Part shown: piece by piece, positions 2,902-14,984 of the stretch | How the letters are laid out: each line of letters starts with the position of its first letter | Position numbering within the stretch: position 1 is the first letter of the stretch | Origin: a virus | Strand: one strand, 5' to 3' | Length of the DNA stretch: 27,183 nucleotides | Virus record (IMG/VR): IMGVR_UViG_3300042449_001179 | Coordinates: 1-27,183 of that record | Position numbers and translations under genes: made by a program | The notes under the pieces: generated by a model | Told to the model about the DNA's origin: nothing | The model's database searches: none | Seen by the model: only the letters and a program-made list of their open reading frames with translations

Positions 2902-3558
2902 ATGCGCAAAGTTTTAATTGGAACACCCTCTTATGACGGAAGAATAGACGTTTGGTTTGCCAATTCATTAATCTCAACCGTAAAGGAATCGATTGAGAAA
3001 GATATTCACGTACATGCCATTTACACTAGTTATGATTCTTTGGTACAAAGGGCGAGAAACTCTTTGGTTAAGTTAGCCTTAGATGGTGGGTATGATGATT
3101 TATTTTTTATTGATTCTGATGTTGAGTGGGAAACTGATTGGTTTTTTAATTTATTAGACAGACCTGAACCAATTGTTGGTGGTGCGTTGGTTAAAAAAAC
3201 TGAGAAGGAAGGATATACTATAAAACTTACTGACAAGGAATTAAAATACTCACAAGACAAAAAAATAATTGAGGTAGATGGTGTTGGAACTGGATTTTTA
3301 AAAGTCTCAAGATTTGCTTTGGAGAAGTTATGGGACGCCTCTGATGAATATCAAAGTGAAGGTGAAACACATAGAATGGTTTTTGACATAAAAGTTGAAA
3401 ACGGAGACCTAATTAGTGAAGATTTTGTTTTGTGTAATAAGTGGAAAAATTTGGGTTACAAAGTATGGGCTGACCCTACCATAACATGCAATCATATAGG
3501 AATAAAAAAATTTAAAGGAAATTTTAAAAAATACATTAAAGAAAATGGATACATTTGA
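2902..3558 (+). CDS. GT-A fold glycosyltransferase (family 2 / Anp1-like)
   Basis: This 218-residue protein would transfer a sugar from a nucleotide-sugar donor. The N terminus (KVLIGTPSYDGRID) and the segment SLVQRARNSLVKLAL are typical of GT-A enzymes that start from a Rossmann-like sheet. DLFFIDSDVEW contains the DXD metal/nucleotide-binding motif at D71-S72-D73. GTGFLKVSR near residue 125 matches the acceptor-side loop of related small phage and bacterial enzymes. There is no signal peptide or membrane segment, so it should be cytoplasmic. It is first in a four-gene cassette, and its last 14 nt overlap the next gene. Sugar and acceptor cannot be read from sequence. Confidence 0.78.
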   Translation: MRKVLIGTPSYDGRIDVWFANSLISTVKESIEKDIHVHAIYTSYDSLVQRARNSLVKLALDGGYDDLFFIDSDVEWETDWFFNLLDRPEPIVGGALVKKTEKEGYTIKLTDKELKYSQDKKIIEVDGVGTGFLKVSRFALEKLWDASDEYQSEGETHRMVFDIKVENGDLISEDFVLCNKWKNLGYKVWADPTITCNHIGIKKFKGNFKKYIKENGYI

Positions 3559-4483
3559 TAGACCAATGGGAGGAACCGAACTGATGTTTGAAGAGCTCCA
3601 AAATAGATTAACCGAAGAACAAAAAGAAAAATTTAGTATCTTTAACTATATTCAAGATGCGGATTTTGATAAATTTACCATATTTTGGAATCAATTGTCA
3701 TATGACCAAGAAGCTGTTTCATTTTTATCGGACCCTGAGATGGTTGAAAAAATTGGACATTTTGTTTTTGTAAGTCATTGGCAGGCGGAAAAATTTCGTC
3801 AAATGTTTGGGATTCCGGGGTATAAGACAAGTGTTATTAAAAATGCTGCTCTTCCAACTGTAAGAAGAAAAACAGGTAAGAGGGATGTTGTAAAACTTTG
3901 TTACACATCAACACCTTGGCGAGGTTTGGACGTTTTGTTGGCAGCATGGGAAACACTAAAACCTGAAAATGCTGAACTTCATGTATTTTCGTCTTGTAAC
4001 ATCTATGGACCCGAGTTTGCTAAAAACGATGAAAATTTTCAAGGTTTATATGATAAATGTGAAGAACTTGATGGTGTTGTATATCGTGGTAGTGTAGACA
4101 ATTTTAGTTTAAGAAAAGAATTACCATATTTTGATATTTTGGCATACCCAAGTACTTTTGAAGAAACTTCATGTATTTCAGTAATTGAATCATTATCTTG
4201 TGGATTAAAAGTGGTAACAAGTAATTTGGGTGCATTACCTGAAACAACTGAAGGTTGGGCAAGAATGTATCCCGTATTAAATTCTCCTGAATTGCATACT
4301 TTGAGATTTGCAAAAATTTTGAATGAAGAAATTGAAAAAATTAGAGAAAATTCAGAGGAATCACATCTTTCATCACAGATGAGTGTTTATAATACAAGAT
4401 GGACGTGGGATTTCAGAATTAATCAATGGAATGAATTGTTTAATGATTTATCAATAGCAATTGATGCTGCACAACCCGAATAA
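3545..4483 (+). CDS. GT4-family (GT-B fold) glycosyltransferase
   Basis: This 312-residue protein has a GT-B layout. The N-terminal half has GGTELMFEEL at residues 9-18. The C-terminal half is a GT4-type Glycos_transf_1 domain with TSTPWRGLDVLLAAW (121-135), RGSV near 181, DILAYPS at 197-203, and the EX7E nucleotide-sugar site at E207 and E215 within FEETSCISVIES. SNLGALPE follows. The protein is shorter than typical GT4 enzymes (350-400 residues), mostly because the N-terminal domain is compact. The ATG at 3545 lies inside the end of the previous gene in another frame, which suggests translational coupling. Donor and acceptor are unknown. Confidence 0.83.
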   Translation: MDTFDRPMGGTELMFEELQNRLTEEQKEKFSIFNYIQDADFDKFTIFWNQLSYDQEAVSFLSDPEMVEKIGHFVFVSHWQAEKFRQMFGIPGYKTSVIKNAALPTVRRKTGKRDVVKLCYTSTPWRGLDVLLAAWETLKPENAELHVFSSCNIYGPEFAKNDENFQGLYDKCEELDGVVYRGSVDNFSLRKELPYFDILAYPSTFEETSCISVIESLSCGLKVVTSNLGALPETTEGWARMYPVLNSPELHTLRFAKILNEEIEKIRENSEESHLSSQMSVYNTRWTWDFRINQWNELFNDLSIAIDAAQPE

Positions 4484-4485
4484 TT

Positions 4486-5307
4486 ATGGTACAAAAAATA
4501 TTTTATAATAGTTCAATGCCAAGGGCTGGTTCAACTTTGATGCAAAACATATTGGGACAAAATCCTGATATGTATACAACCCCAACGTCAGGACTTTTTG
4601 AAATGTTGGCTGCGTCAAGAACAATTTTTACCGATGGGTTGGAATTCAAAGCACAAAATGAAGAACAAATGATGAATGGTTTTAGAGGTTATCTAAAATC
4701 AGGATTATACGGTTTTTTTAATAATATTACCGATAAACCGTATGTTGTTGATAAATGTCGTGGTTGGAATTCTGAATGGGAATTTGTAAATGCGTTTGAC
4801 CCAAATCCAAAGATGATTTGTATGATTAGAGATATCAGAGCGGTTTATGCTTCTTTGGAAAAGAAATTCAGAAAAAATCCTTTAATTGACCACCACTTGG
4901 CTAACTGGGGAAATTTGGTTGGTACTACAACAGATAAGAGAGTTGAGGTTTGGAGTGCAAACCCACCAATTGGTCCGAGTATGGATAGAATATATCAGGT
5001 ATTAGTTCAGGGATTACACAAAAATATTCTTTTTGTAAAGTTTGAAGATTTAACATCAGACCCCGAGACACAAATGAGACGAGTTTATGAATATCTTGAA
5101 TTACCATATTTTCAACACGACTTTAATAACATACAACAAATAACACATGAAGATGATAAGTGGTATGGTATTTTTGGAGACCACATTATAAGACAACAAA
5201 TAAAACCTGTAAAAGAAGATTTCAGAGAAGTTTTAGGACCAAACGCTTGTAAATTAATTGAACAAAGTTATGGATGGTTCTTTAACGATTTTGAATATAA
5301 AATTTAA
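4486..5307 (+). CDS. PAPS-dependent sulfotransferase family protein
   Basis: This 273-residue protein starts with the 5'-phosphosulfate loop: SSMPRAGSTLMQNIL at residues 9-23, the PRxGST form of the P-loop-like motif that binds PAPS. The 3'-phosphate motif follows at ICMIRDIRAVYASLEKKF (111-128), with R115 and S123 spaced as in known sulfotransferases. LFVKFEDLTSDPE near residues 182-194 is the usual family segment before the C-terminal helices. It would move sulfate from host-made PAPS to a sugar or other hydroxyl/amine. It starts 2 nt after the preceding glycosyltransferase (TAATTATG) and ends 2 nt before the next, so it belongs to the same operon. A sulfated glycan is the natural inference; the acceptor is unknown. 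Confidence 0.85.
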   Translation: MVQKIFYNSSMPRAGSTLMQNILGQNPDMYTTPTSGLFEMLAASRTIFTDGLEFKAQNEEQMMNGFRGYLKSGLYGFFNNITDKPYVVDKCRGWNSEWEFVNAFDPNPKMICMIRDIRAVYASLEKKFRKNPLIDHHLANWGNLVGTTTDKRVEVWSANPPIGPSMDRIYQVLVQGLHKNILFVKFEDLTSDPETQMRRVYEYLELPYFQHDFNNIQQITHEDDKWYGIFGDHIIRQQIKPVKEDFREVLGPNACKLIEQSYGWFFNDFEYKI

Positions 5308-5309
5308 TT

Positions 5310-6320
5310 ATGAAAGTAGGTTATAAAACACAAACGGACAATGAATATAAATCGATTAAATTACCCGATAATGAATCAAGTCCTATTATAGTATCAGTAG
5401 CACAAACAAAAGATAATAACATGGAAAATAAATTTTTAGTATGGCACATTGAGGGAGGGTTGGGTAAAAATATTGCCGCGACCGCATTAATTCCTGCAAT
5501 TGCAAAAAAATATCGAAGCAGAAGGTTGGTCATCGTGGCTTCATACCCTGAGGTATTTTTAAATCACCCTGACGTATATAGAGTCTACAGAGTTGGTTTG
5601 ACATCATATTTCTATGATGACTATATCTTAGGTAAAGATACGGTTGTTTTTAGACAAGAGCCGTATTTTCAGAGTGGTCACATTATGAGAAAAAAACATT
5701 TAGTTGAGAATTGGGCGGACATTGTTAATGTTTCCTATGACAAACAACAACCACAACTGTTTATGAATATGATTCAGTCACAGATTGCGGGTGTTTGGAA
5801 TCGTGAAAAACCAATTTTATTGCTTCAAACAGGTGGAGGACAATATCAAGGTCAATCATTAAATTACACTTGGACTCGAGACATGCCAATTGACTTGGCA
5901 AACCACGTAGCGAATAAGTATCAGAATGATTATCATATTATACAATTAACTCGTGAGGGTGGTTATGTAATTCCAAATGTTGAGGTTGTTAACTACCAAT
6001 TAACAAACATGGAACTAATTGGATTGGTTGGAATGTCAACAAAAAGAGTTCTTATTGATTCGAGCGCTCAACACGCCGCGGCGGGATTTGGTTTACCATC
6101 GGTAGTATTTTGGGTAGGAACCGCTCCTGAAAATTTTGGTTACAACATACATACAAACATCAAAACGTTACCACCGGTGGGTAATACTAAGATGGTTGAT
6201 AGTTATTTGTTTGACTATTCTTTTGATGGTGTACCACATGAGTGTCCATATCAAACTGTTGATGAAATGTTTAATTTAACAGATATTGATAAAACTTTAA
6301 CGGAATACTTTAACAAATAA
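5310..6320 (+). CDS. GT9/heptosyltransferase-like glycosyltransferase
   Basis: This 336-residue protein has a GT-B core that begins at about residue 38: FLVWHIEGGLGKNIAATALIPAIA is the Gly-rich first strand-loop-helix of GT9-like enzymes. The C-terminal donor half contains ILLLQTGGGQYQGQ, YHIIQLTRE and VLIDSSAQHAAAGFGLPS followed by VVFWVGTAPENFGY. This matches the DSxxxHxAxAxGxPxVxLFG signature of GT9. The first 37 residues (5310-5420) are polar and outside the fold, so the ATG at 5421 is a possible alternative start; 5310 is preferred because it sits 2 nt after the previous stop. Last gene of the cassette. Confidence 0.72.
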   Translation: MKVGYKTQTDNEYKSIKLPDNESSPIIVSVAQTKDNNMENKFLVWHIEGGLGKNIAATALIPAIAKKYRSRRLVIVASYPEVFLNHPDVYRVYRVGLTSYFYDDYILGKDTVVFRQEPYFQSGHIMRKKHLVENWADIVNVSYDKQQPQLFMNMIQSQIAGVWNREKPILLLQTGGGQYQGQSLNYTWTRDMPIDLANHVANKYQNDYHIIQLTREGGYVIPNVEVVNYQLTNMELIGLVGMSTKRVLIDSSAQHAAAGFGLPSVVFWVGTAPENFGYNIHTNIKTLPPVGNTKMVDSYLFDYSFDGVPHECPYQTVDEMFNLTDIDKTLTEYFNK

Positions 6321-6331
6321 AAAAAACTTAA

Positions 6332-6345
6332 TATTTATATATAAA
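6332..6345 (+). promoter_or_regulatory. TATTTAT motif within an AT palindrome
   Basis: TATTTATA at 6332-6339 overlaps the perfect 12-bp palindrome TTTATATATAAA (6334-6345), 7 nt before the start codon at 6353. It is one of eleven similar sites in this window. A late promoter or RNA hairpin is inferred. Confidence 0.4.
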
Positions 6346-6352
6346 AAAAATT

Positions 6353-6733
6353 ATGTCACACAGATTAATATCAAATAGTTCCGTTGTTTACAACGCACAA
6401 ACACTTCAATCATCAGTATTAACAATTGTCCCAAGACAAGTAAACTTCTTAGATAACGACCAAATGGGTCCCTTTGGTGGCGGTGGTGGAGAAATGCACC
6501 AAGTACAAATCAATGGTGTCCTTTTTGCTGATTATTCTGCCAGTACACAATCACGTTTGGAAGGTATCAATTATACCCTAACCGAAACCGAATGGGATAC
6601 ATTCTACAACTCACAAACATTTCAAGGTACGACACCTTATGATAAAGTTATGGAGTGTAGTTTGTTATATATTAAAGATAATGTACAAACAATGTTCGGA
6701 TTGACTTCGAGTGATTGGATTTACGTAGAGTAA
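6353..6733 (+). CDS. Small phage protein of unknown function, probably virion-associated
   Basis: I do not recognise this 126-residue protein. It has no signal peptide or membrane segment. It carries a Gly loop (FGGGGGE, residues 41-47), a polar N terminus and a compact C-terminal part ending FGLTSSDWIYVE. The composition (many Gln, Thr, Ser and Asn, few charged residues) resembles virion proteins. It starts after an A-rich leader, has its own upstream AT palindrome and is followed by a strong terminator, so it may be transcribed as a single-gene unit. High expression of a minor structural or decoration protein is a guess. Confidence 0.6.
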   Translation: MSHRLISNSSVVYNAQTLQSSVLTIVPRQVNFLDNDQMGPFGGGGGEMHQVQINGVLFADYSASTQSRLEGINYTLTETEWDTFYNSQTFQGTTPYDKVMECSLLYIKDNVQTMFGLTSSDWIYVE

Positions 6734-6761
6734 TTTTTAATAATTAAAACTTAATAGAATT

Positions 6762-6791
6762 AAACCCTATGTTTTCACATAGGGTTTTTTT
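6762..6791 (+). terminator. Rho-independent terminator
   Basis: AAACCCTATG (6762-6771) pairs perfectly with CATAGGGTTT (6778-6787) around a 6-nt loop, and the T-run extends to 6791. It closes the transcript of the gene ending at 6733. Confidence 0.9.
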
Positions 6792-6795
6792 GTAG

Positions 6796-6808
6796 TATTT
6801 ATTATAAA
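6796..6808 (+). promoter_or_regulatory. TATTTAT motif, inverted repeat TTTAT-T-ATAAA
   Basis: GTATTTATT starts at 6795, just after the terminator and about 55 nt before the ATG at 6862. TTTAT (6798-6802) mirrors ATAAA (6804-6808). Because it directly follows a terminator and precedes a gene, this is the clearest place for one of these motifs to act as a promoter. Confidence 0.45.
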
Positions 6809-6861
6809 CCACGCAATGCAACGATTAACAAACATATATCACCCGATAACAATTTAACAAT

Positions 6862-7215
6862 ATGGAATTTTTTATTAGACAAGATAGTGATTTACCAATT
6901 CTTAAAATGGCGGCTGTAAGAGATGGTAGGGATAACTCATGGCAAATTTTTGACGAAGAGTTGGAAAATGCAACAATTAGATTTTCTATGATAGAAGAAT
7001 CAACAGGTATACCAAAAATATTAATGGGTAATGCATATATTGTTGAAAAAACCGCAGTAGAAGTTGATTCAGTCAAAGAATATTACATATATTATAAGTG
7101 GGATTCTCGTGACACAAAAAGAGCAGGTAGGTTTATTGGTGAATTTGTAATAATAAATTCTATGGGTGAACTCATAGCCCCGATTAGAGAAATACTTTAT
7201 ATCAATATTATTTGA
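6862..7215 (+). CDS. Probable baseplate/adaptor protein with BppU-like N-terminal fold
   Basis: This 117-residue protein has the pattern of small phage Ig-like domains such as the BppU N-terminal domain. A short strand (FFIRQDSDLP) is followed by WQIFDEELENATIRFSMIE, then ILMGNAYIV, then YYIYYKWDSRDTKRAGRFIGEFVI and a final strand ending in GELIAPI. The YxW...DTxxAGxFxGEF segment is the most telling part and resembles the end of that fold. In other phages such domains join fibres or adaptors to the baseplate. The protein stands alone between a terminator and the polymerase leader. The match is by pattern, and another Ig-like virion protein is possible. Confidence 0.55.
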   Translation: MEFFIRQDSDLPILKMAAVRDGRDNSWQIFDEELENATIRFSMIEESTGIPKILMGNAYIVEKTAVEVDSVKEYYIYYKWDSRDTKRAGRFIGEFVIINSMGELIAPIREILYINII

Positions 7216-7236
7216 CATCTGAGGATATACTTAATA

Positions 7237-7244
7237 TATTTATT
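7237..7244 (+). promoter_or_regulatory. TATTTATT motif upstream of the DNA polymerase
   Basis: TATTTATT lies 57 nt before the polymerase start and just upstream of the leader hairpins at 7257-7286. Transcription starting shortly downstream would include both hairpins. No inverted repeat is built on this copy. Confidence 0.35.
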
Positions 7245-7256
7245 GAGGAAGAGTAA

Positions 7257-7286
7257 TCTCAACTTAGTTGAGAGTATAATGTCTCA
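7257..7286 (+). promoter_or_regulatory. Two alternative hairpins in the DNA polymerase leader (possible operator)
   Basis: TCTCAAC (7257-7263) can pair with GTTGAGA (7267-7273) across a 3-nt loop. The same middle element, TGAGA (7269-7273), can instead pair with TCTCA (7282-7286) around the 8-nt loop GTATAATG. The two structures exclude each other and lie 15 nt or more upstream of the ATG at 7302. T4 DNA polymerase represses its own translation by binding a leader hairpin with an 8-nt loop, so the second form is a plausible counterpart. The loop sequence differs from T4's, and function is inferred. Confidence 0.5.
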
Positions 7287-7301
7287 AAAAAAAATATTAT
7301 T

Positions 7302-10127
7302 ATGGTATCACAACAAGAAATTGAACAATTCCTACTGGGAGAGGACCCAGAAAAATACATAGTCGCCCTTGAGTATGATTATGCATCAAACAAAATTTAC
7401 AAAGTAATTCACGACCCGATACAGGGTAAGCAAGTTAAATCCGATTCATTTATTCCGTTTGCGTGGGTTGGTGACCTACACAACAAAAATTTTTATAAAA
7501 ATTCAAAAGCGCTTCAAAAAGAATCCATGTCAAAACATGGTATTATGATTGAAAAACTGAGTTCTGAAGGTGACCCTCGTTTAGAAAAAGGTCTTAAATT
7601 TTTAGTTAAAACAACAAAAACATATTCAGACCTCGTTAGTTTTTTCAAAAATGGAGGGTTAGACCCCTGGAATAGAGACAACTCAGATGATATTCATATA
7701 TTACCACCCGTAGAACAATACTTGGTACAGAAAAGTAAAAGACTATTTAAAGGTTTTGAAGAATATGATGAACTCCATAGATTTGTATTCGATATCGAGA
7801 CTACGGGTCTTAAAGCAGAAACCGATAGTATTTTCCTTATCGGAATGAAAGACAATCGTGGTTTTGAAAAAGTAGTTTCAGCACAAAATGAACAAGAAGA
7901 ACGTCAACTGATTATTGATTTTTTTGACACAATAAACCAATTAAAACCCGCACTTATTGGTGGGTATAACTCAGCATTCTTTGACTTTCCATTTATTCTT
8001 AAACGTGCCGAAATATTAAAACTCGATATTAAAAAAATATCCAAGACCCTTAGCCCAACACAACACCTAAGACAAAAAGAAGGGATGTTAAAGTTGGCAA
8101 ATGAAATGGAACCATACACACAAACAATGATGTGGGGTTATAACATTTTGGATATTGCACATGCCGTTAGACGTGCTCAGGCGATTAACTCTGACATTAA
8201 GAGTTGGGGACTTAAGTATATAACTCAATTTATTGGTGCTGAAAAACCAAACCGAGTTTATGTTAAAGGTGATAAAATCGGTAAAACATATTTTTCTAAA
8301 TCAAAATATTATTTCAATCCACAAAGTGGTGGATATCGTGAAGAGGGTGACCCTGGTACTGAAAACATTATGGAAAAATTCCCTAATAAATTTGAAGAGG
8401 TTACGGGTAACTACATCATCGAAAGATACCTTTATGATGATATATGGGAAACCATGATTGTTGATGAAGAATTTAACCAAGCAAACTTTTTGTTGGCTAA
8501 ATTGGTACCAACAACCTATGAACGACTATCAACTATGGGTACCGCCACACTATGGAAAATGATTATGGCTTCGTGGTCATATAAGAATGGGTTAGCAATA
8601 CCGGCAAAAGGAGCTAAAAGACCATTTACGGGTGGTTTATCAAGACTCTTACAGATAGGATATTCTCGTGAAGTATTAAAACTTGACTATTCATCACTAT
8701 ACCCTTCAATTCAGTTGGTTCATGATGTATTCCCTAAGTGTGATGTCACGGGTGTGATGAAGAGTATGTTAAAGTATTTCCGTGATACTCGTATTCGTTA
8801 TAAGAAATTGGCCGAAGAACATTATAAAACTGACCCTAAATTATCATCACAATACGCTCGTAAACAATTACCGATTAAAATCTTTATTAACGCATTCTTT
8901 GGTTCACTGTCAGCCCCACAGGTATTCCCCTGGGGTGATATGGATATGGGTGAACAAATTACATGTACTGGTCGTCAGTATTTAAGACAGATGATTATGT
9001 GGTTTATGAGTCGCGGATATGAACCTTTAGTTATGGATACGGACGGTGTTAACTTTGCAACTCCTCCTGATAGATTGGACTACAAATATGTTGGTAAAGG
9101 TTTAAATGGTTTGGTAATAGAGGGTAAAGAATATATTGGTTCAGAGGCTGATGTTGCCGAGTATAACGATTTATTTATGAGGGACGAGATGGGGTTAGAT
9201 ATTGATGGAATTTGGCCAGCGACAATTAATGTTGCCCGTAAAAACTACGCACTATTGACAGATAAGGGTAAAGTTAAACTGACGGGTAATTCAATTAAAT
9301 CTAAAAAACTACAGACCTATGTATCTGAATTTTTGGATAAAGGTCTAAGGATGTTATTGGATGGTAAAGGTCATGAATTTTTGGAATTTTATTACGAGTA
9401 TGTTGATATGATTTATAATAAACAAGTTCCTATTGGTAAAATAGCCAACAAAGCACGTGTTAAACAAAGTGTTCAAGAATACAAAATACACGTAAATAAA
9501 AGGACTAAGTCTGGTTCATTGATGTCTCGTCAAGCACATATGGAATTATTATTACATAATAATGTATCTGCAGGTCTTGGAGATACTGTTTATTATGTTA
9601 ACAACGGACAAAGGAAGTCTCACGGTGATGTTGTAAAAAAAGGAGATTCTGTAACAATTAACTGTTATTTGGTCAATGAAAAAGACATTGAAATGAACCC
9701 TAATTTATTGGGAGAGTATAATGTTCCTCGTTACTTGGCATCGTTTAACAAACGTATCGAACCACTATTAGTTGTATTTCATCCTGATATTCGTGATGAA
9801 ATTTTAGTTGAAAACCCAAACGATAGAAAGTTTTTTACTAAAACACAATCACAATTGGTTCGTGGATATCCTCGTCGTGATGGTGACCAAGATACTTTAG
9901 ATGAAGTATTAACTTTGTCTGAGACTGAGGTTGAGTTTTGGAATAACGTAAATATCGACCCATTCTATATGTATTTGAGTGGTACCTTAGATTTGGTTAA
10001 CACAGAATATGTTAATAAAAATCAAAAAATTATGGCTGGTTTTGAAAAACCAATCGAAAGGTCGAAAAATTGGGTTGAGTTTTATGAATATACTGACGAC
10101 ATATTTGCCGCACAATATATGAATTAA
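7302..10127 (+). CDS. 43: Family B replicative DNA polymerase (T4 gp43-type)
   Basis: This 941-residue protein, close to T4 gp43 (898), has both activities of the family. The 3'-5' exonuclease shows Exo I DIETTG (164-169), Exo II YNSAFFDFP (222-230) and a probable Exo III YLYDDIWE (376-383). The polymerase half shows motif A DYSSLYPSI (462-470), motif B K521 to G534 (KQLPIKIFINAFFG) and motif C MDTDG (578-582). Motif C departs from the usual GDTDS but keeps both metal-binding Asp. It would copy the phage genome at the replisome. It stands alone after a hairpin-bearing leader, and its last 4 nt overlap the convergent gene ending at 10124. No truncation or intein is seen. Confidence 0.96.
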   Translation: MVSQQEIEQFLLGEDPEKYIVALEYDYASNKIYKVIHDPIQGKQVKSDSFIPFAWVGDLHNKNFYKNSKALQKESMSKHGIMIEKLSSEGDPRLEKGLKFLVKTTKTYSDLVSFFKNGGLDPWNRDNSDDIHILPPVEQYLVQKSKRLFKGFEEYDELHRFVFDIETTGLKAETDSIFLIGMKDNRGFEKVVSAQNEQEERQLIIDFFDTINQLKPALIGGYNSAFFDFPFILKRAEILKLDIKKISKTLSPTQHLRQKEGMLKLANEMEPYTQTMMWGYNILDIAHAVRRAQAINSDIKSWGLKYITQFIGAEKPNRVYVKGDKIGKTYFSKSKYYFNPQSGGYREEGDPGTENIMEKFPNKFEEVTGNYIIERYLYDDIWETMIVDEEFNQANFLLAKLVPTTYERLSTMGTATLWKMIMASWSYKNGLAIPAKGAKRPFTGGLSRLLQIGYSREVLKLDYSSLYPSIQLVHDVFPKCDVTGVMKSMLKYFRDTRIRYKKLAEEHYKTDPKLSSQYARKQLPIKIFINAFFGSLSAPQVFPWGDMDMGEQITCTGRQYLRQMIMWFMSRGYEPLVMDTDGVNFATPPDRLDYKYVGKGLNGLVIEGKEYIGSEADVAEYNDLFMRDEMGLDIDGIWPATINVARKNYALLTDKGKVKLTGNSIKSKKLQTYVSEFLDKGLRMLLDGKGHEFLEFYYEYVDMIYNKQVPIGKIANKARVKQSVQEYKIHVNKRTKSGSLMSRQAHMELLLHNNVSAGLGDTVYYVNNGQRKSHGDVVKKGDSVTINCYLVNEKDIEMNPNLLGEYNVPRYLASFNKRIEPLLVVFHPDIRDEILVENPNDRKFFTKTQSQLVRGYPRRDGDQDTLDEVLTLSETEVEFWNNVNIDPFYMYLSGTLDLVNTEYVNKNQKIMAGFEKPIERSKNWVEFYEYTDDIFAAQYMN

Positions 10128-10466: not shown

Positions 10467-11579
10467 TTATATCACATACATTTGTCTAGGTAAAGCCCTA
10501 TATTGTAATGACTTGTTAAGTTGTTCAGCAATATTGGCTTGAATCTCCATTTGTTTGTCAGGTCTTAATCTTTCAAGTCTCTGTAACAATTCTTCAATCA
10601 ATTTAGATTTTTCATCTTTTGCTTCTGTAAGTAAAGAATCGTAATCCATTTTTAATTCACTATCAGGTGTCTTAAGGTCTCCTGAATATTTACCCCTAAC
10701 TCTACCTAAGGTTTCTTTAACGTATGCGGTAAACCATCTACGAACCCATGTTTGTGCTGGTGAATTTAATTGTGCCCATCTTAAATTCTCTAATGTAACG
10801 TCTGATGGTAATTTAACTACATCAGGATTTGCAGCTAAACAATCGTCCCTATCGTATGTGTCATAGTACCAATACCACACTCTGTGTGAATTGTTTTGCA
10901 TATTACCAAAATCAAATTTACCGCCAGGTACGTTATACAACATAATGGCTTTTTTACCATCAGGGAGAGCGGTAATTCTGTATGTTAACTCACCTGATAT
11001 AATTCTTCTTTTCAGGTTAATGTCTTGCATTCTCAATAAAATATCAAATGCTGGCGTAATAAAATAGTTACCTGTGGTTCCTAATTGTGAGAATCCGGCA
11101 CCACCACCTAAACCCATACCTCCAAAACCACCAAATCCGCCCATGAACGGGTCAAAATATGCGGAATCAAGTTCAGGACGCGTAAACCATAAAAGTTCAT
11201 TAATTTCACGGCCGGCTGGAATTTCATAGATTTGTTGGTTATTCACCAAATCAAAATAGTCTTTCTTCAAAACCCAAGGCCCACCTGCTTGTAATCCCAC
11301 AATTTTAGAATAAGCATACGTGTATTGTGTCTCCCAATCTAAACTTCTTGTTATTAAGGCATTTGCCAATGATTGTTTATCTAAGTCTAAACCATAAACA
11401 GATGTCCATTGAGATTCAATTAACCAATCAAGAACGTATTGTGAATAATCTTCGACGGATAATTCTAAAAGGGAATCCATCATTTCATCTTCGATTTCCA
11501 CCCCTCTCAAAGGTGCACCCAAAAGGTGTCTGATTCTTGTGTAGAGTTTTGTTCTTTCGTTACCTGTAATAATTGCCAT
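10467..11579 (-). CDS. 13: Neck protein, T4 gp13-like
   Basis: This 370-residue protein starts ERTKLYTRIRHLLGAP followed by VEIEDEMMDSLLELSVEDYSQY. This is the LGAPxxxxEVxDEQxxDxIxxAIxxY pattern of T4-like gp13. The C-terminal part has WVRRWFTAYVKETLGRVRG followed by LKMDYDSLLTEAKDEKSKL, matching the conserved end of gp13 (WxxxYxxAxxKxxxGxxxGK ... LxxEAxxExxxL). In T4, gp13 and gp14 complete the filled head so that the tail can join. The family is about 310 residues; the extra length includes a Gly-rich loop near residues 142-165. It sits among helicase and SOD genes on the minus strand, while its likely partner genes run on the plus strand from 15032. Confidence 0.72.
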   Translation of the reverse strand: MAIITGNERTKLYTRIRHLLGAPLRGVEIEDEMMDSLLELSVEDYSQYVLDWLIESQWTSVYGLDLDKQSLANALITRSLDWETQYTYAYSKIVGLQAGGPWVLKKDYFDLVNNQQIYEIPAGREINELLWFTRPELDSAYFDPFMGGFGGFGGMGLGGGAGFSQLGTTGNYFITPAFDILLRMQDINLKRRIISGELTYRITALPDGKKAIMLYNVPGGKFDFGNMQNNSHRVWYWYYDTYDRDDCLAANPDVVKLPSDVTLENLRWAQLNSPAQTWVRRWFTAYVKETLGRVRGKYSGDLKTPDSELKMDYDSLLTEAKDEKSKLIEELLQRLERLRPDKQMEIQANIAEQLNKSLQYRALPRQMYVI

Positions 11580-11619: not shown

Positions 11620-13179
11620 TTACTTATTTAACAAATCAGAGGCTGGAAAAGTATAATTACCATTAACAATTTTGGTGTTTTTATTATCAAACACAATTGT
11701 TCCTTTGTTATCGCGGTGGAAGACCAAATAATCTACTTTGTATTTTTTTACATTTCCGGTATCATAAACGGTTATTATACCATTTTTTTCATCTGTTCTT
11801 GAAAATGGTTTAATCTGTGCCGTTTTTTCACCATCGTTTGTTTGAATAATTGCATCGATACCACCAATCATATCGTTAACATCACCTAATTCTCCAACTT
11901 TTTTTACTTCTTGAGTGTTAAAAATTATTTTAAGATTATCAACAGCATTAACTTCTCGTTTGTCTCCGAACTTATTTGTGGTATCTAACCCTGACATTAA
12001 TGTTTTAAAAGTAGATGATTCTGAATTAAAAATTCTATATCTAAATTCAACCAAATATTTTATTAAACGTTCAGTTTCACTCAATTGTACTTGTTGTGGT
12101 TGATTAACCATATTAATGGTATCAACACCATAATTTCTTAAGACCTCGTTAATGTCATTTACTATTGTGCAAAATGCCGTGTAGTTAGTATTAAGTTTAT
12201 TAATTACTGAACGACCGGATTGTTCATAATCATAGACACCTGACATTTGACCTTCACCATATTGATTTTTTTCGTACCAAAAATCCGCGAACACCTCTTT
12301 TAAGATGTTCATAATTGCGAACATAAATTTTTTCTTAACCTCAGGGTTTGTATTAAAAATTTGTCGGTACGTGTTAACTTGAGCTGAGCTACATCCTCTT
12401 GATGTACCTTCCAAAATTATTGTTTTGACATCACGGGTTTCATTAATTTTTTTTTTCGTTTTGGAATCAAATCTAAAATTTACATAACTCCAATTAATAA
12501 CTGAAAAAAAGTTTTTGATGTATTCATCCCTTTTATTTCTGTATTTAAGGTAATATGCATGTTCCCAAACATCCAAACCCAACAAAGGATATCCACCATC
12601 CGTAATTGTATTCATTAATGGGTTATCTTGGTTTTTGGTTGTCATAATTTTTATGTCACCATTTCTTGTTAAAACCAACCAAGCCCAACCTGAACCGAAC
12701 ACTGATTTTGACTTTCTTGTAAATTCTTGTTTGAATTTTTCATAGTCACCATATTTCTTAACAATTTTATCATATACAGGACCACTTGGTTTCTGTTGTT
12801 TTGGAGATAACATATTCCAAAATATTGCGTGGTTATAAGCTCCTCCCGCATTATTATGAACTGTTGTATTATATCTTGAAATACCTTTTATAATGTTTTC
12901 AAGTTCTAAATTTTGGTCTTTAATCTTTTCTAATTCCAAGTTTAATTTTTCAACATACCCCTTATAATGTTTGTTATAGTGGGTATTCATAGTTTCGGCA
13001 TCAATAAATCTTACCAGTGATGTGTATGTGTATGGTAACTTTTCAATTTTAATTTTTGATGTTGTTTCTTTGGCTTCTTGAATTGTTTGACTATTTTCTT
13101 GGTTGAGTTCGGTATTTGGTTCAGTAGATATTAGTTTCTCTAACTCTTCTATTTTTTTTCTTTGTTTTGTGAATTTCAT
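11620..13179 (-). CDS. Mn-type superoxide dismutase fused to a PD-(D/E)XK nuclease-like C-terminal domain
   Basis: This 519-residue protein has three parts. Residues 1-45 are charged and probably helical. Residues 47 to about 240 form a complete Fe/Mn superoxide dismutase: LPYTYTSLVRFIDAETMNTHY, NNAGGAYNHAIFW and DVWEHAYYLKY, with all four metal ligands (H67, H117, D203, H207). Gln184 in NQDNPLM, with Gly113 four residues before H117, follows the Mn rather than the Fe pattern. Residues about 245-519 are not part of any SOD. They include a helical stretch, then VNDMIGGIDAIIQ and KTAQIKPF (D442, Q455, K457) followed by YKVDYLVFH, which resembles a D...(E/Q)xK nuclease core. SODs are normally near 200 residues. 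It lies between the neck and helicase genes. Oxidative protection, a structural role or nuclease activity are all possible. Confidence 0.85.
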   Translation of the reverse strand: MKFTKQRKKIEELEKLISTEPNTELNQENSQTIQEAKETTSKIKIEKLPYTYTSLVRFIDAETMNTHYNKHYKGYVEKLNLELEKIKDQNLELENIIKGISRYNTTVHNNAGGAYNHAIFWNMLSPKQQKPSGPVYDKIVKKYGDYEKFKQEFTRKSKSVFGSGWAWLVLTRNGDIKIMTTKNQDNPLMNTITDGGYPLLGLDVWEHAYYLKYRNKRDEYIKNFFSVINWSYVNFRFDSKTKKKINETRDVKTIILEGTSRGCSSAQVNTYRQIFNTNPEVKKKFMFAIMNILKEVFADFWYEKNQYGEGQMSGVYDYEQSGRSVINKLNTNYTAFCTIVNDINEVLRNYGVDTINMVNQPQQVQLSETERLIKYLVEFRYRIFNSESSTFKTLMSGLDTTNKFGDKREVNAVDNLKIIFNTQEVKKVGELGDVNDMIGGIDAIIQTNDGEKTAQIKPFSRTDEKNGIITVYDTGNVKKYKVDYLVFHRDNKGTIVFDNKNTKIVNGNYTFPASDLLNK

Positions 13180-13223: not shown

Positions 13224-14984
13224 TTATCTTCGTCGAGAAATTGTATCTAAAATTTCTTCTAACGTATTTCCTTTATCTTCATCATCACCCATGACTGTCG
13301 ATATGATTTTTTTCTTTTTATTTAAAATGTTGTAAATTACACCTTCTATTGTGTTATCAAACAACGGATAAAAGATGGACACATTTGATTTTTGTCCGTA
13401 TCGGTATGCTCTGTCTTCTGCCTGTGCGTGGTCTGCAGGTACAAATGATAAATCATTCATAATTACAGCTTCTGCTGCGGTTAATGTAATACCAACACCC
13501 GCAGCTTTTAAATTACCAATGAACACTTTTATTTTGTCGTTTTCTTGGAATTGGTCAACAGAGTTTTGTCTTGCAGGTTTACTCATTGAACCATCAAGTG
13601 TAACGGCAGATTTACCAAAATGTTCTTTTATTTGATTTAGAGTGTTTGTAAAGTTTGTAAAAATAATAACCTTTTTACCTTGTTCAATGACGTTTTCAGC
13701 CACCTCAATGGTTTGTTTTATCTTTTCCTCTGCAATTATTTGTCTTACTTTCATCAACTTTGAGAATTGAACTGTGAGTGATTTTGACTCTTCAGAAGAT
13801 TCGTACCAATCATAGTATTCACCCATTAAGGCTTCGTATTGTTTTGACTTTAAATTAAGATACACTGGTGTAATAATCTTATCGGGTAAGTCTAATATAT
13901 CCTGTTTTAGTCTTCGTAAAACTTGTGGTTTTGTTCTGTCACGTAATTCTTCCAAATTTGATGCTCCGTCTAACTTCCAAACTTTTCTATTACCAACTTT
14001 GAACTGATATCCTTCACAGTATCTTTTAACATATGCCATCCAATTCCAAGCAACGGGTGAGTCCACCAAATCCAAAAGATTAAAATAGTTAATTGGTCTT
14101 GATGTCATTGGTGTGCCGGTTAATAACCAAATACGTTCAATTTTTTTACAAATATCATTAACAATTTTAGTTCTTTGTGCCTGTTTGTTTTGAATGTAAT
14201 GAGCTTCGTCTACCACCACCAAATCAAAATTTTCATTAATGATTTGTGAATTTTTAATATCTTTTGGGTCGTAAAAGTTTTTTAAGATGTCGTAGTTTAC
14301 TATCACATAATCACCCGACTCCCAAATTTTACCTTCAACAATCGATACTTTTCTATCGGTATAGTTTGCAATTTCTCTTTGCCAGTTAATCTTCAAAGAC
14401 GCTGGACAAATAATCAAAGTTTTTTTAGAACCCGTTTCCAAGGCCGCAATAATTGTTGAGGTCGTTTTCCCGAGTCCCATATCGTCTGCCAAAATAAACT
14501 TTTTATTTTCAACCAATTTTTGAACAGCTTCTTTTTGATGTTCAAGTGGTGGACGATGAGAGTATTTTGAATAATCAATTACAACATCTTTAATAGAGTT
14601 GTCTTTTATAATTGCCGCCTTTGGTAACCAAAATTCATGAAGTTCTTCATTTTCAAAAAGTTTTCCAAATATGTGAAAGGCTTTGTCTTTTTCCACCAAT
14701 ATTTTTTCTACATAAATTTTTTCAGGTTGACGGGTTAATAATTTGTCTTCCATCATCATTTTAGAAAAATATTTATCTAACGGAACCCATTTACGTGCTA
14801 TCTTTGGTGTAATCTTATGGAAATCGATAATGTAGTCAGATTGAGGTCTTGTTATTTTGTAATGTTTCTGAGTTTCGACCTTTTTCTTTATTGATAATAT
14901 ATAATTATTATATCCTTCGTATGTTTCTAATATACGAAGTGCCCTAATTTCAGGTATGTTCGATTTTATTGACTGTTCCTGCAT
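13224..14984 (-). CDS. SNF2-family DNA helicase/translocase (SMARCAL1-like)
   Basis: This 586-residue protein carries the SNF2 motor motifs in order: Q-motif-like EHQKEAV (148-154), motif I DDMGLGKTT (167-175), Ia LIICPASLKINW, motif II DEAH (259-262), motif III LLTGTPM (287-293), motif IV KVIIFTNF, motif V near GVGITLTAA, and motif VI QAEDRAYRYGQ (521-531). The compact spacing without long insertions resembles annealing helicases of the SMARCAL1/HARP group and many phage SNF2 proteins. It would move along duplex or branched DNA using ATP, for replication fork or recombination intermediate remodelling. Residues 1-140 are a phage-specific N-terminal region of unknown fold. It heads a minus-strand run of four genes, divergent from 15032. 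Confidence 0.92.
   Translation of the reverse strand: MQEQSIKSNIPEIRALRILETYEGYNNYILSIKKKVETQKHYKITRPQSDYIIDFHKITPKIARKWVPLDKYFSKMMMEDKLLTRQPEKIYVEKILVEKDKAFHIFGKLFENEELHEFWLPKAAIIKDNSIKDVVIDYSKYSHRPPLEHQKEAVQKLVENKKFILADDMGLGKTTSTIIAALETGSKKTLIICPASLKINWQREIANYTDRKVSIVEGKIWESGDYVIVNYDILKNFYDPKDIKNSQIINENFDLVVVDEAHYIQNKQAQRTKIVNDICKKIERIWLLTGTPMTSRPINYFNLLDLVDSPVAWNWMAYVKRYCEGYQFKVGNRKVWKLDGASNLEELRDRTKPQVLRRLKQDILDLPDKIITPVYLNLKSKQYEALMGEYYDWYESSEESKSLTVQFSKLMKVRQIIAEEKIKQTIEVAENVIEQGKKVIIFTNFTNTLNQIKEHFGKSAVTLDGSMSKPARQNSVDQFQENDKIKVFIGNLKAAGVGITLTAAEAVIMNDLSFVPADHAQAEDRAYRYGQKSNVSIFYPLFDNTIEGVIYNILNKKKKIISTVMGDDEDKGNTLEEILDTISRRR

What the first reader, a model, noticed from the sequence alone, without database searches (positions are those of the whole stretch)
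11620..13179. Phage Mn-superoxide dismutase fused to a nuclease-like domain
The SOD half keeps all four metal ligands (H67, H117, D203, H207) and the Mn-type Gln in NQD, so it should be active. The extra 270 residues end in a D...QxK arrangement (D442, Q455, K457) with flanking strands, like a PD-(D/E)XK nuclease core. SOD is rare in phages, and I know of no described SOD-nuclease fusion. Possible roles are a virion enzyme facing host oxidative defence, or a nuclease whose activity is linked to redox state or a metal supplied by the SOD part.
Basis: partly seen in the sequence, partly recalled or inferred. Interest (0 to 1): 0.65.

Follow-up and report, generated by a model that had tools for sequence, protein, structure and literature searches.

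The report
Phage superoxide dismutase–nuclease with capsid leader
A family of large viruses that probably infect Bacteroidota carries a conserved gene joining a superoxide-destroying enzyme to a predicted DNA-cutting enzyme, with short tags suggesting that it is loaded into the virus head, cut into two enzymes there and injected into the host with the viral DNA.

Summary
The minus-strand ORF 13179..11620 (519 aa) has an intact Mn-type superoxide dismutase (residues 44-234) followed by a second half. Its last ~130 residues are predicted as a PD-(D/E)XK nuclease fold (pLDDT 91), with E409, D442, Q455 and K457 invariant in 41 homologues. The fusion is not a one-off. At least 433 IMG/VR loci encode the C-terminal half. 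Of 198 loci compared, 133 are SOD+nuclease, 37 nuclease only, 23 zincin+SOD and 5 SOD only. Where neighbours are covered, all occupy one slot between a UvsW-like helicase and a neck gene. The phages are T4-like, up to 322 kb, with a gp21-type prohead protease, gp23 and bS21, matching described Bacteroidetes phages.

The phages' own gp23 has the same motif (LINE|A), and the leader and linker are the only low-confidence segments of the full model. Best explanation: a capsid-targeted internal protein, packaged, cut by the prohead protease into SOD and nuclease, and ejected into the host. Packaging, cleavage and enzyme activities are inferred, not shown. No description of such a protein was found.

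The parts
11620..13179 (-). whole ORF, 519 aa: leader, Mn-SOD, linker, helical region, PD-(D/E)XK-like nuclease
13051..13179 (-). residues 1-43: N-terminal leader, proposed capsid-targeting sequence; fast-evolving; pLDDT <50 at 18-40
13075..13083 (-). IQE33-35|A36, proposed prohead-protease site in the leader
   Evidence: [LIVMF]xE at this place in 60 of 61 distinct leader/linker sets; exceptions explained by start choice or frameshift
12478..13050 (-). residues 44-234: Mn/Fe superoxide dismutase domain, Mn type; ligands H67, H117, D203, H207; Q184
   Evidence: Pfam PF00081 and PF02777; PDB Mn-SODs; invariance
12394..12462 (-). residues 240-262: linker between the domains; pLDDT <50 at 243-257
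12439..12447 (-). INE245-247|T248, proposed protease site 1 of the linker
   Evidence: 61 of 61 distinct linkers carry [LIVMF]xE here vs 38% expected from shuffling; LNE/INE commonest
12409..12417 (-). ILE255-257|G258, proposed protease site 2 of the linker
   Evidence: 61 of 61 vs 20% expected from shuffling; E nearly invariant in A3
12016..12393 (-). residues 263-388: helical region with invariant C263 and C337 and motif GRSxxNxxNTNYxxFC; role unknown
11623..12015 (-). residues 389-519: PD-(D/E)XK-like nuclease core; E409 (helix), D442 (start of strand), Q455 and K457 (next strand)
   Evidence: AlphaFold2 pLDDT 91; Foldseek; invariance
13224..14984 (-). upstream neighbour: UvsW-like SNF2 helicase, conserved in synteny
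10467..11579 (-). downstream neighbour: head-tail adaptor/neck-like protein, conserved in synteny
   Evidence: weak PHROG 211 match

Best explanation
The gene encodes an internal head (ejection) protein of T4-like huge phages that probably infect Bacteroidota. An N-terminal leader targets the precursor into the prohead. The phage's gp21-type prohead protease cuts after [LI]xE in the leader and at two sites in the linker, removing the leader and separating an active Mn-SOD (about 24 kDa) from a PD-(D/E)XK-type DNase half (about 30 kDa). Both enter the host with the DNA. There the SOD would remove superoxide met by the incoming genome and early phage enzymes, while the nuclease would act on host or competitor DNA or another nucleic-acid target. 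Shown here: both domains, conservation of catalytic residues, the conserved slot and its modular make-up, the motif sites, and the presence of the protease and a gp23 with the same motif. Inferred: packaging, cleavage, enzyme activities and roles in the host.
For: SOD: Pfam; Mn-SODs in PDB; ligands invariant. Nuclease fold: pLDDT 91.1, pTM 0.83; I-Ssp6803I probability 0.99; Hjc; PD-(D/E)XK viral proteins; E, D, Q, K invariant in 41. Leader and linker: (leader site 98% vs 49% shuffled, linker sites 100% vs 20% and 38%); only 18-40 and 243-257 have pLDDT <50; pTM 0.50, domains independent; against more distant relatives the leader or linker changes faster than the domains. Protease and capsid: Peptidase_S77 in 10 of 15 long contigs; Gp23 in 11 of 15; gp23 N-terminus ...LINE|A in all 11 read, at the place expected for the T4 delta-domain cut. 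T4 gp21 cuts after L/I-X-E and CTS propeptides direct proteins into the head: PMC9026906. Leaders of the same kind elsewhere: in the 322-kb contig of L177, 45 of 317 ORFs have [LI][TSN]E at residues 3-14 vs 12.1 shuffled (maximum 23 in 200) and 8.5 internal. Modularity in one slot. SOD-only, nuclease-only and zincin-SOD versions keep an [LI]xE leader or segment in nearly all cases. Host: bS21 on the opposite strand inside the head cassette in 9 of 15 contigs, as in Bacteroidetes phages of PMC9723584.
Against: No virion proteomics or activity data. The [LI]xE motif is short and the leaders are rich in E, so a single match means little; the argument rests on place and conservation. The window contig itself holds neither gp21 nor gp23; these come from relatives (L045 contig about 70-86% identical in most shared genes). 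Leader enrichment is weaker in the second contig tested (7 vs 2.3 shuffled, maximum 6 of 300; 2.3 internal, maximum 7). In L072 and L073 the leader is frameshifted against the body. In many homologues Met follows the leader site, so internal initiation giving a leaderless SOD is possible.
Confidence: 0.6

Rival explanations
1. A bifunctional enzyme made and used in the infected cell, not packaged and not cut: the SOD detoxifies superoxide during infection and the nuclease serves DNA repair, recombination or host DNA breakdown next to UvsW and DNA polymerase. Leader and linker are only flexible tails.
For: Neighbours include a UvsW-like helicase and a B-family DNA polymerase. Other jumbo phages encode free-standing SODs without a known virion role (PA5oct group, Vibrio phage 2.275.O.).
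Against: Position-conserved [LI]xE sites in otherwise variable leader and linker, the same motif in gp23, leader kept in nuclease-only and SOD-only versions. The gene is also next to the neck gene.
Confidence: 0.25
2. The C-terminal half is a catalytically dead nuclease fold that serves as a DNA-binding or structural anchor, holding SOD on packaged DNA or at the neck.
For: No Pfam nuclease family is reached by any of 41 homologues except one RE_MjaI match at E 0.0021; PDB fold matches are weak (best E 6.6e-3); it lies beside a neck gene.
Against: All four putative catalytic residues are invariant in 41 sequences down to 40% identity, hard to explain for a dead enzyme.
Confidence: 0.12
3. A redox- or metal-coupled enzyme: SOD chemistry or its Mn controls the nuclease.
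For: Two cysteines (C263, C337) are invariant in the C-terminal half; the domains are in one chain in most homologues.
Against: 37 of 198 loci have the nuclease half alone and 28 have SOD without it, in the same slot; low-confidence linker and low pTM argue against a fixed interface.
Confidence: 0.03

Closest known systems
T4 internal head proteins (IPI, IPII, IPIII, Alt) with capsid-targeting sequence cut by gp21
   Same: Short N-terminal leader ending in [LI]xE, in phages that have a gp21-type protease and gp23; proposed packaging, cutting and ejection (PMC9026906)
   Different: Cargo is a SOD plus a nuclease in one chain with extra cut sites between them; leader sequence unlike T4's; packaging not shown
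Mn/Fe superoxide dismutase family (PF00081/PF02777)
   Same: Full domain, Mn-type ligands and Gln, dimer motif WEHAYY
   Different: Phage-encoded, with leader and C-terminal nuclease half or N-terminal zincin
PD-(D/E)XK superfamily, E-D-QxK variants such as I-Ssp6803I (2ost) and Hjc
   Same: Predicted alpha-beta-beta-beta core with E in the first helix, D at a strand start and QxK in the next strand
   Different: Extra 125-residue helical region; no sequence-level match to a named nuclease family; not tied to an intron
Uncultured Caudovirales phage protein A0A6J5L953 annotated 'superoxide dismutase' (501 aa)
   Same: Model aligns over the C-terminal half at TM 0.89, 35% identity: evidently the same fusion
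   Different: Deposited with only the SOD named; no description of the second half or leader found
bS21-encoding huge phages of Bacteroidetes (PMC9723584)
   Same: bS21 on the reverse strand inside the terminase-portal-protease-capsid region, up to about 330 kb
   Different: That paper does not mention superoxide
Megavirus chilensis Cu,Zn-SOD (Lartigue et al. 2015, cited in PMC9405923)
   Same: A viral SOD; SOD is listed among virion-packaged enzymes of giant viruses
   Different: Eukaryotic giant virus, unrelated Cu,Zn enzyme, no nuclease

Membership tests
Mn/Fe superoxide dismutase | Sod_Fe_N and Sod_Fe_C domains over curated cut-off | tested here: met
   70.8 and 130.9 bits
Mn/Fe superoxide dismutase | Four metal ligands (H, H, D, H) and second-sphere Gln | tested here: met
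   H67, H117, D203, H207, Q184 present and invariant in 35
Mn/Fe superoxide dismutase | Dismutase activity with Mn or Fe | not testable with these tools
   needs recombinant protein
[quoted passage not shown]
   high-confidence model; best solved-structure matches are members, though no match reaches E 0.001
PD-(D/E)XK nuclease superfamily | Conserved catalytic residues in the right elements (E/D, D, (D/E/Q)xK) | tested here: met
   E409, D442, Q455, K457 invariant in 41
PD-(D/E)XK nuclease superfamily | Sequence-level match to a named nuclease family (supporting, not required) | tested here: not met
   41 members against Pfam: one RE_MjaI match at E 0.0021 only; no PDB sequence relative
PD-(D/E)XK nuclease superfamily | Nuclease activity | not testable with these tools
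   needs assay
T4-type capsid-targeted internal protein | Phage has gp21-type prohead protease and gp23 | tested here: met
   in 10 and 11 of 15 long contigs of relatives; not in the window fragment itself
T4-type capsid-targeted internal protein | N-terminal propeptide with L/I-X-E at its end | tested here: met
T4-type capsid-targeted internal protein | Found in the mature head in cut form and ejected | not testable with these tools
   needs virion mass spectrometry and ejection assay

The most novel reading that the evidence does not exclude
A two-enzyme precursor packaged in a phage head: the prohead protease splits it into a superoxide dismutase and a DNase that are injected together, so the phage brings its own antioxidant and a nuclease into the cell at time zero. 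The slot behaves as a swappable cargo position (zincin, SOD, nuclease in different combinations).
Probability: 0.5. Interest if true: 0.75.

Novelty: new variant of a known kind. Interest (0 to 1): 0.6.

Why it matters
If true, a common group of huge aquatic phages injects a superoxide dismutase together with a nuclease. That would make oxidative stress during phage entry a testable battleground, and would extend T4-type internal proteins from small inhibitors to a multi-enzyme precursor split inside the capsid. The [LI]xE leader also gives a sequence rule for predicting the ejected proteome of these uncultured phages, most of whose proteins have no known function.

Tried and rejected
Chance or assembly artefact: rejected by recurrence in over 100 contig loci and purifying selection. 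Named nuclease family by sequence: Pfam, PHROGs and PDB profile searches gave only sub-threshold matches; the ArsA_ATPase match (E 0.0011) is in 2 of 41 homologues and taken as chance. Cultured-phage homologue of the C-terminal half: none in 50,697 records. Cellular homologue: none in the GTDB scan, which used only two short patterns and is weak evidence of absence. Leaderless homologues (L072, L073, L080): L080 has the leader from a GTG start; L072 and L073 have a frameshifted leader but still read ILKE before Met. Redox or metal coupling: disfavoured because each half occurs alone. Literature: no paper found on a phage SOD-nuclease fusion or a capsid-packaged phage SOD; only open-licence papers are searchable. 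Active-site residues of I-Ssp6803I could not be checked in the papers read.

Full report
WHAT IS THERE. The reported interval holds one ORF on the minus strand, 13179 to 11620, 519 aa. Pfam places the two halves of Mn/Fe superoxide dismutase at 44-125 and 131-234, and the nearest solved structures are bacterial Mn-SODs. The window is a fragment of a contractile-tail phage: tail sheath, tail tube, baseplate hub, B-family DNA polymerase, UvsW-like helicase, neck-like protein. The window's own record is this 27,183-base virus contig.

THE SECOND HALF. Forty-one diverse homologues of residues 256-519 were aligned. E409, D442, Q455 and K457 are invariant. AlphaFold2 on that alignment gives mean pLDDT 91.1 and pTM 0.83. 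Residues of about 389-519 form a long helix with E409, a short strand, a strand starting at D442 and a strand carrying Q455-x-K457, the layout expected of a PD-(D/E)XK core. The best solved-structure matches are the PD-(D/E)XK homing endonuclease I-Ssp6803I (probability 0.99, E 6.6e-3) and archaeal Hjc resolvases; viral matches include several annotated PD-(D/E)XK or resolvase proteins. None of the PDB matches reaches E 0.001, and sequence searches reach no named nuclease family, so this is a new branch placed by fold and active site. The 125 residues before the core are helical, with two invariant cysteines (C263, C337), and have no assigned role.

HOW COMMON. None was found in 50,697 named phage records or, by a weak pattern scan, in 84,980 GTDB genomes. 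One uncultured-phage protein in the viral structure library, labelled only 'superoxide dismutase', is evidently the same fusion. A tblastn survey of the fetched loci classified 198: 133 SOD+nuclease, 37 nuclease only, 23 zincin+SOD and 5 SOD only. In nearly every locus with flanks, the gene lies between the UvsW-like helicase and the neck gene, followed by a 111-aa protein and DNA polymerase. The slot is therefore conserved and the domains in it are interchangeable. Some loci overlap on the same contig (a few contigs were fetched twice), so these are counts of loci, not of independent phages.

WHICH PHAGES. Fifteen long contigs carrying the gene (106-322 kb) were searched. Ten have a gp21-type prohead protease (Peptidase_S77), eleven a gp23 capsid protein and nine a ribosomal protein S21 gene on the opposite strand within the head cassette. 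That arrangement is the one described for huge Bacteroidetes phages of lakes, up to 331 kb (PMC9723584), so a Bacteroidota host is likely. That paper does not mention superoxide.

LEADER AND LINKER. The segment before the SOD and the segment between the two domains vary in sequence. Against more distant relatives the leader or the linker changes faster than the domains. Yet 60 of 61 distinct leader/linker sets carry [LIVMF]xE 8-18 residues before the SOD start (49% expected after shuffling), and all 61 carry it at two places in the linker (20% and 38% expected). In 88 SOD-nuclease proteins the commonest triplets are LTE and LNE in the leader and LNE, INE, ISE, LSE and ITE in the linker. The three apparent leader exceptions are explained by a GTG start (L080) or a frameshift (L072, L073). 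In the full-length model the only segments with pLDDT below 50 are 18-40 and 243-257, exactly the leader and linker, and the low pTM (0.50) fits two independent domains. T4 gp21 cuts head proteins after L/I-X-E, and its internal proteins carry N-terminal capsid-targeting propeptides ending in this motif (PMC9026906). The gp23 proteins of these phages, including that of a SOD-only phage, all read ...LINE|A at the position expected for the T4 delta-domain cut. In the window the proposed sites are IQE35|A, INE247|T and ILE257|G.

A LARGER LEADER CLASS. In the 322-kb contig of L177, 45 of 317 ORFs have [LI][TSN]E within residues 3-14, against 12.1 after shuffling (maximum 23 of 200) and 8.5 at internal positions. 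Many share recognisable leaders such as MKIIITESQY and MKKIIRLxESDLxxIIKRLINEQ. The SOD-nuclease is one of the 45. In the 106-kb contig closest to the window the excess is in the same direction but small (7 vs 2.3).

HOW IT MOST LIKELY WORKS. The precursor is targeted into the prohead by its leader, cut by the phage protease into Mn-SOD and nuclease, and ejected with the DNA. SOD would protect the incoming genome and early enzymes from superoxide; the nuclease would act on host or rival nucleic acid. The first part (domains, sites, protease, slot) is shown at sequence level. Packaging, cutting, activity and function in the host are inferred. Confidence about 0.6 for the packaged-and-processed reading; about 0.93 for an active SOD, 0.9 for the nuclease fold, 0.7 for an active nuclease.

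RIVALS. A cytoplasmic bifunctional enzyme (0.25), a dead nuclease fold as anchor (0.12) and redox or metal coupling (0.03) are set out in the Rival explanations section. The separate occurrence of each domain in the same slot argues most strongly against coupling.

NOVELTY. SOD, PD-(D/E)XK nucleases and T4-type internal proteins are each known. The combination, its conservation across a large phage clade, and the proposed splitting by the prohead protease were not found described in the open-licence literature. I file it as a new variant of a known kind.

Noticed in passing
L010:7659-8744, L027:2396-3487; L234:3298-3684: A small putative zincin (TLAHEWSHEYQ...E) is fused in front of the SOD in 23 loci of the same slot; the 322-kb SOD-nuclease phage has a free-standing relative elsewhere. 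No Pfam family passes its cut-off.
   Followed up: partly
L234-L249 (322-kb contig G003), e.g. L249 end and L235: Dozens of unrelated small proteins share short N-terminal leaders (MKIIITESQY..., MKKIIRLxESDLxxIIKxxINE, MNLQENIxRIxxMMG...E) ending in [LI]xE: a likely capsid-targeted ejection proteome.
   Followed up: partly
L033:5109-7973 and 6130-6936: The UvsW-like gene appears to hold an intein whose middle is overlapped out of frame by a 268-aa ORF resembling a homing endonuclease.
   Followed up: no
window residues C263 and C337 of the ORF (12391-12393 and 12169-12171): Two cysteines invariant in all 41 homologues of the C-terminal half; possible disulfide or metal pair, unexplained.
   Followed up: no
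window 2902-6320: Glycosyltransferase and sulfotransferase genes next to the S74 tail-fibre gene (182-1756).
   Followed up: no
L072 and L073 near 7170-7353 and 5650-5836: Leader of the SOD-nuclease is in another frame than the body in both contigs; sequencing error, decay or internal start.
   Followed up: partly
phage records LC727698, MK797984, OR142618 and others: Jumbo Pseudomonas phages of the PA5oct group encode a distant free-standing SOD, annotated hypothetical in most records.
   Followed up: no
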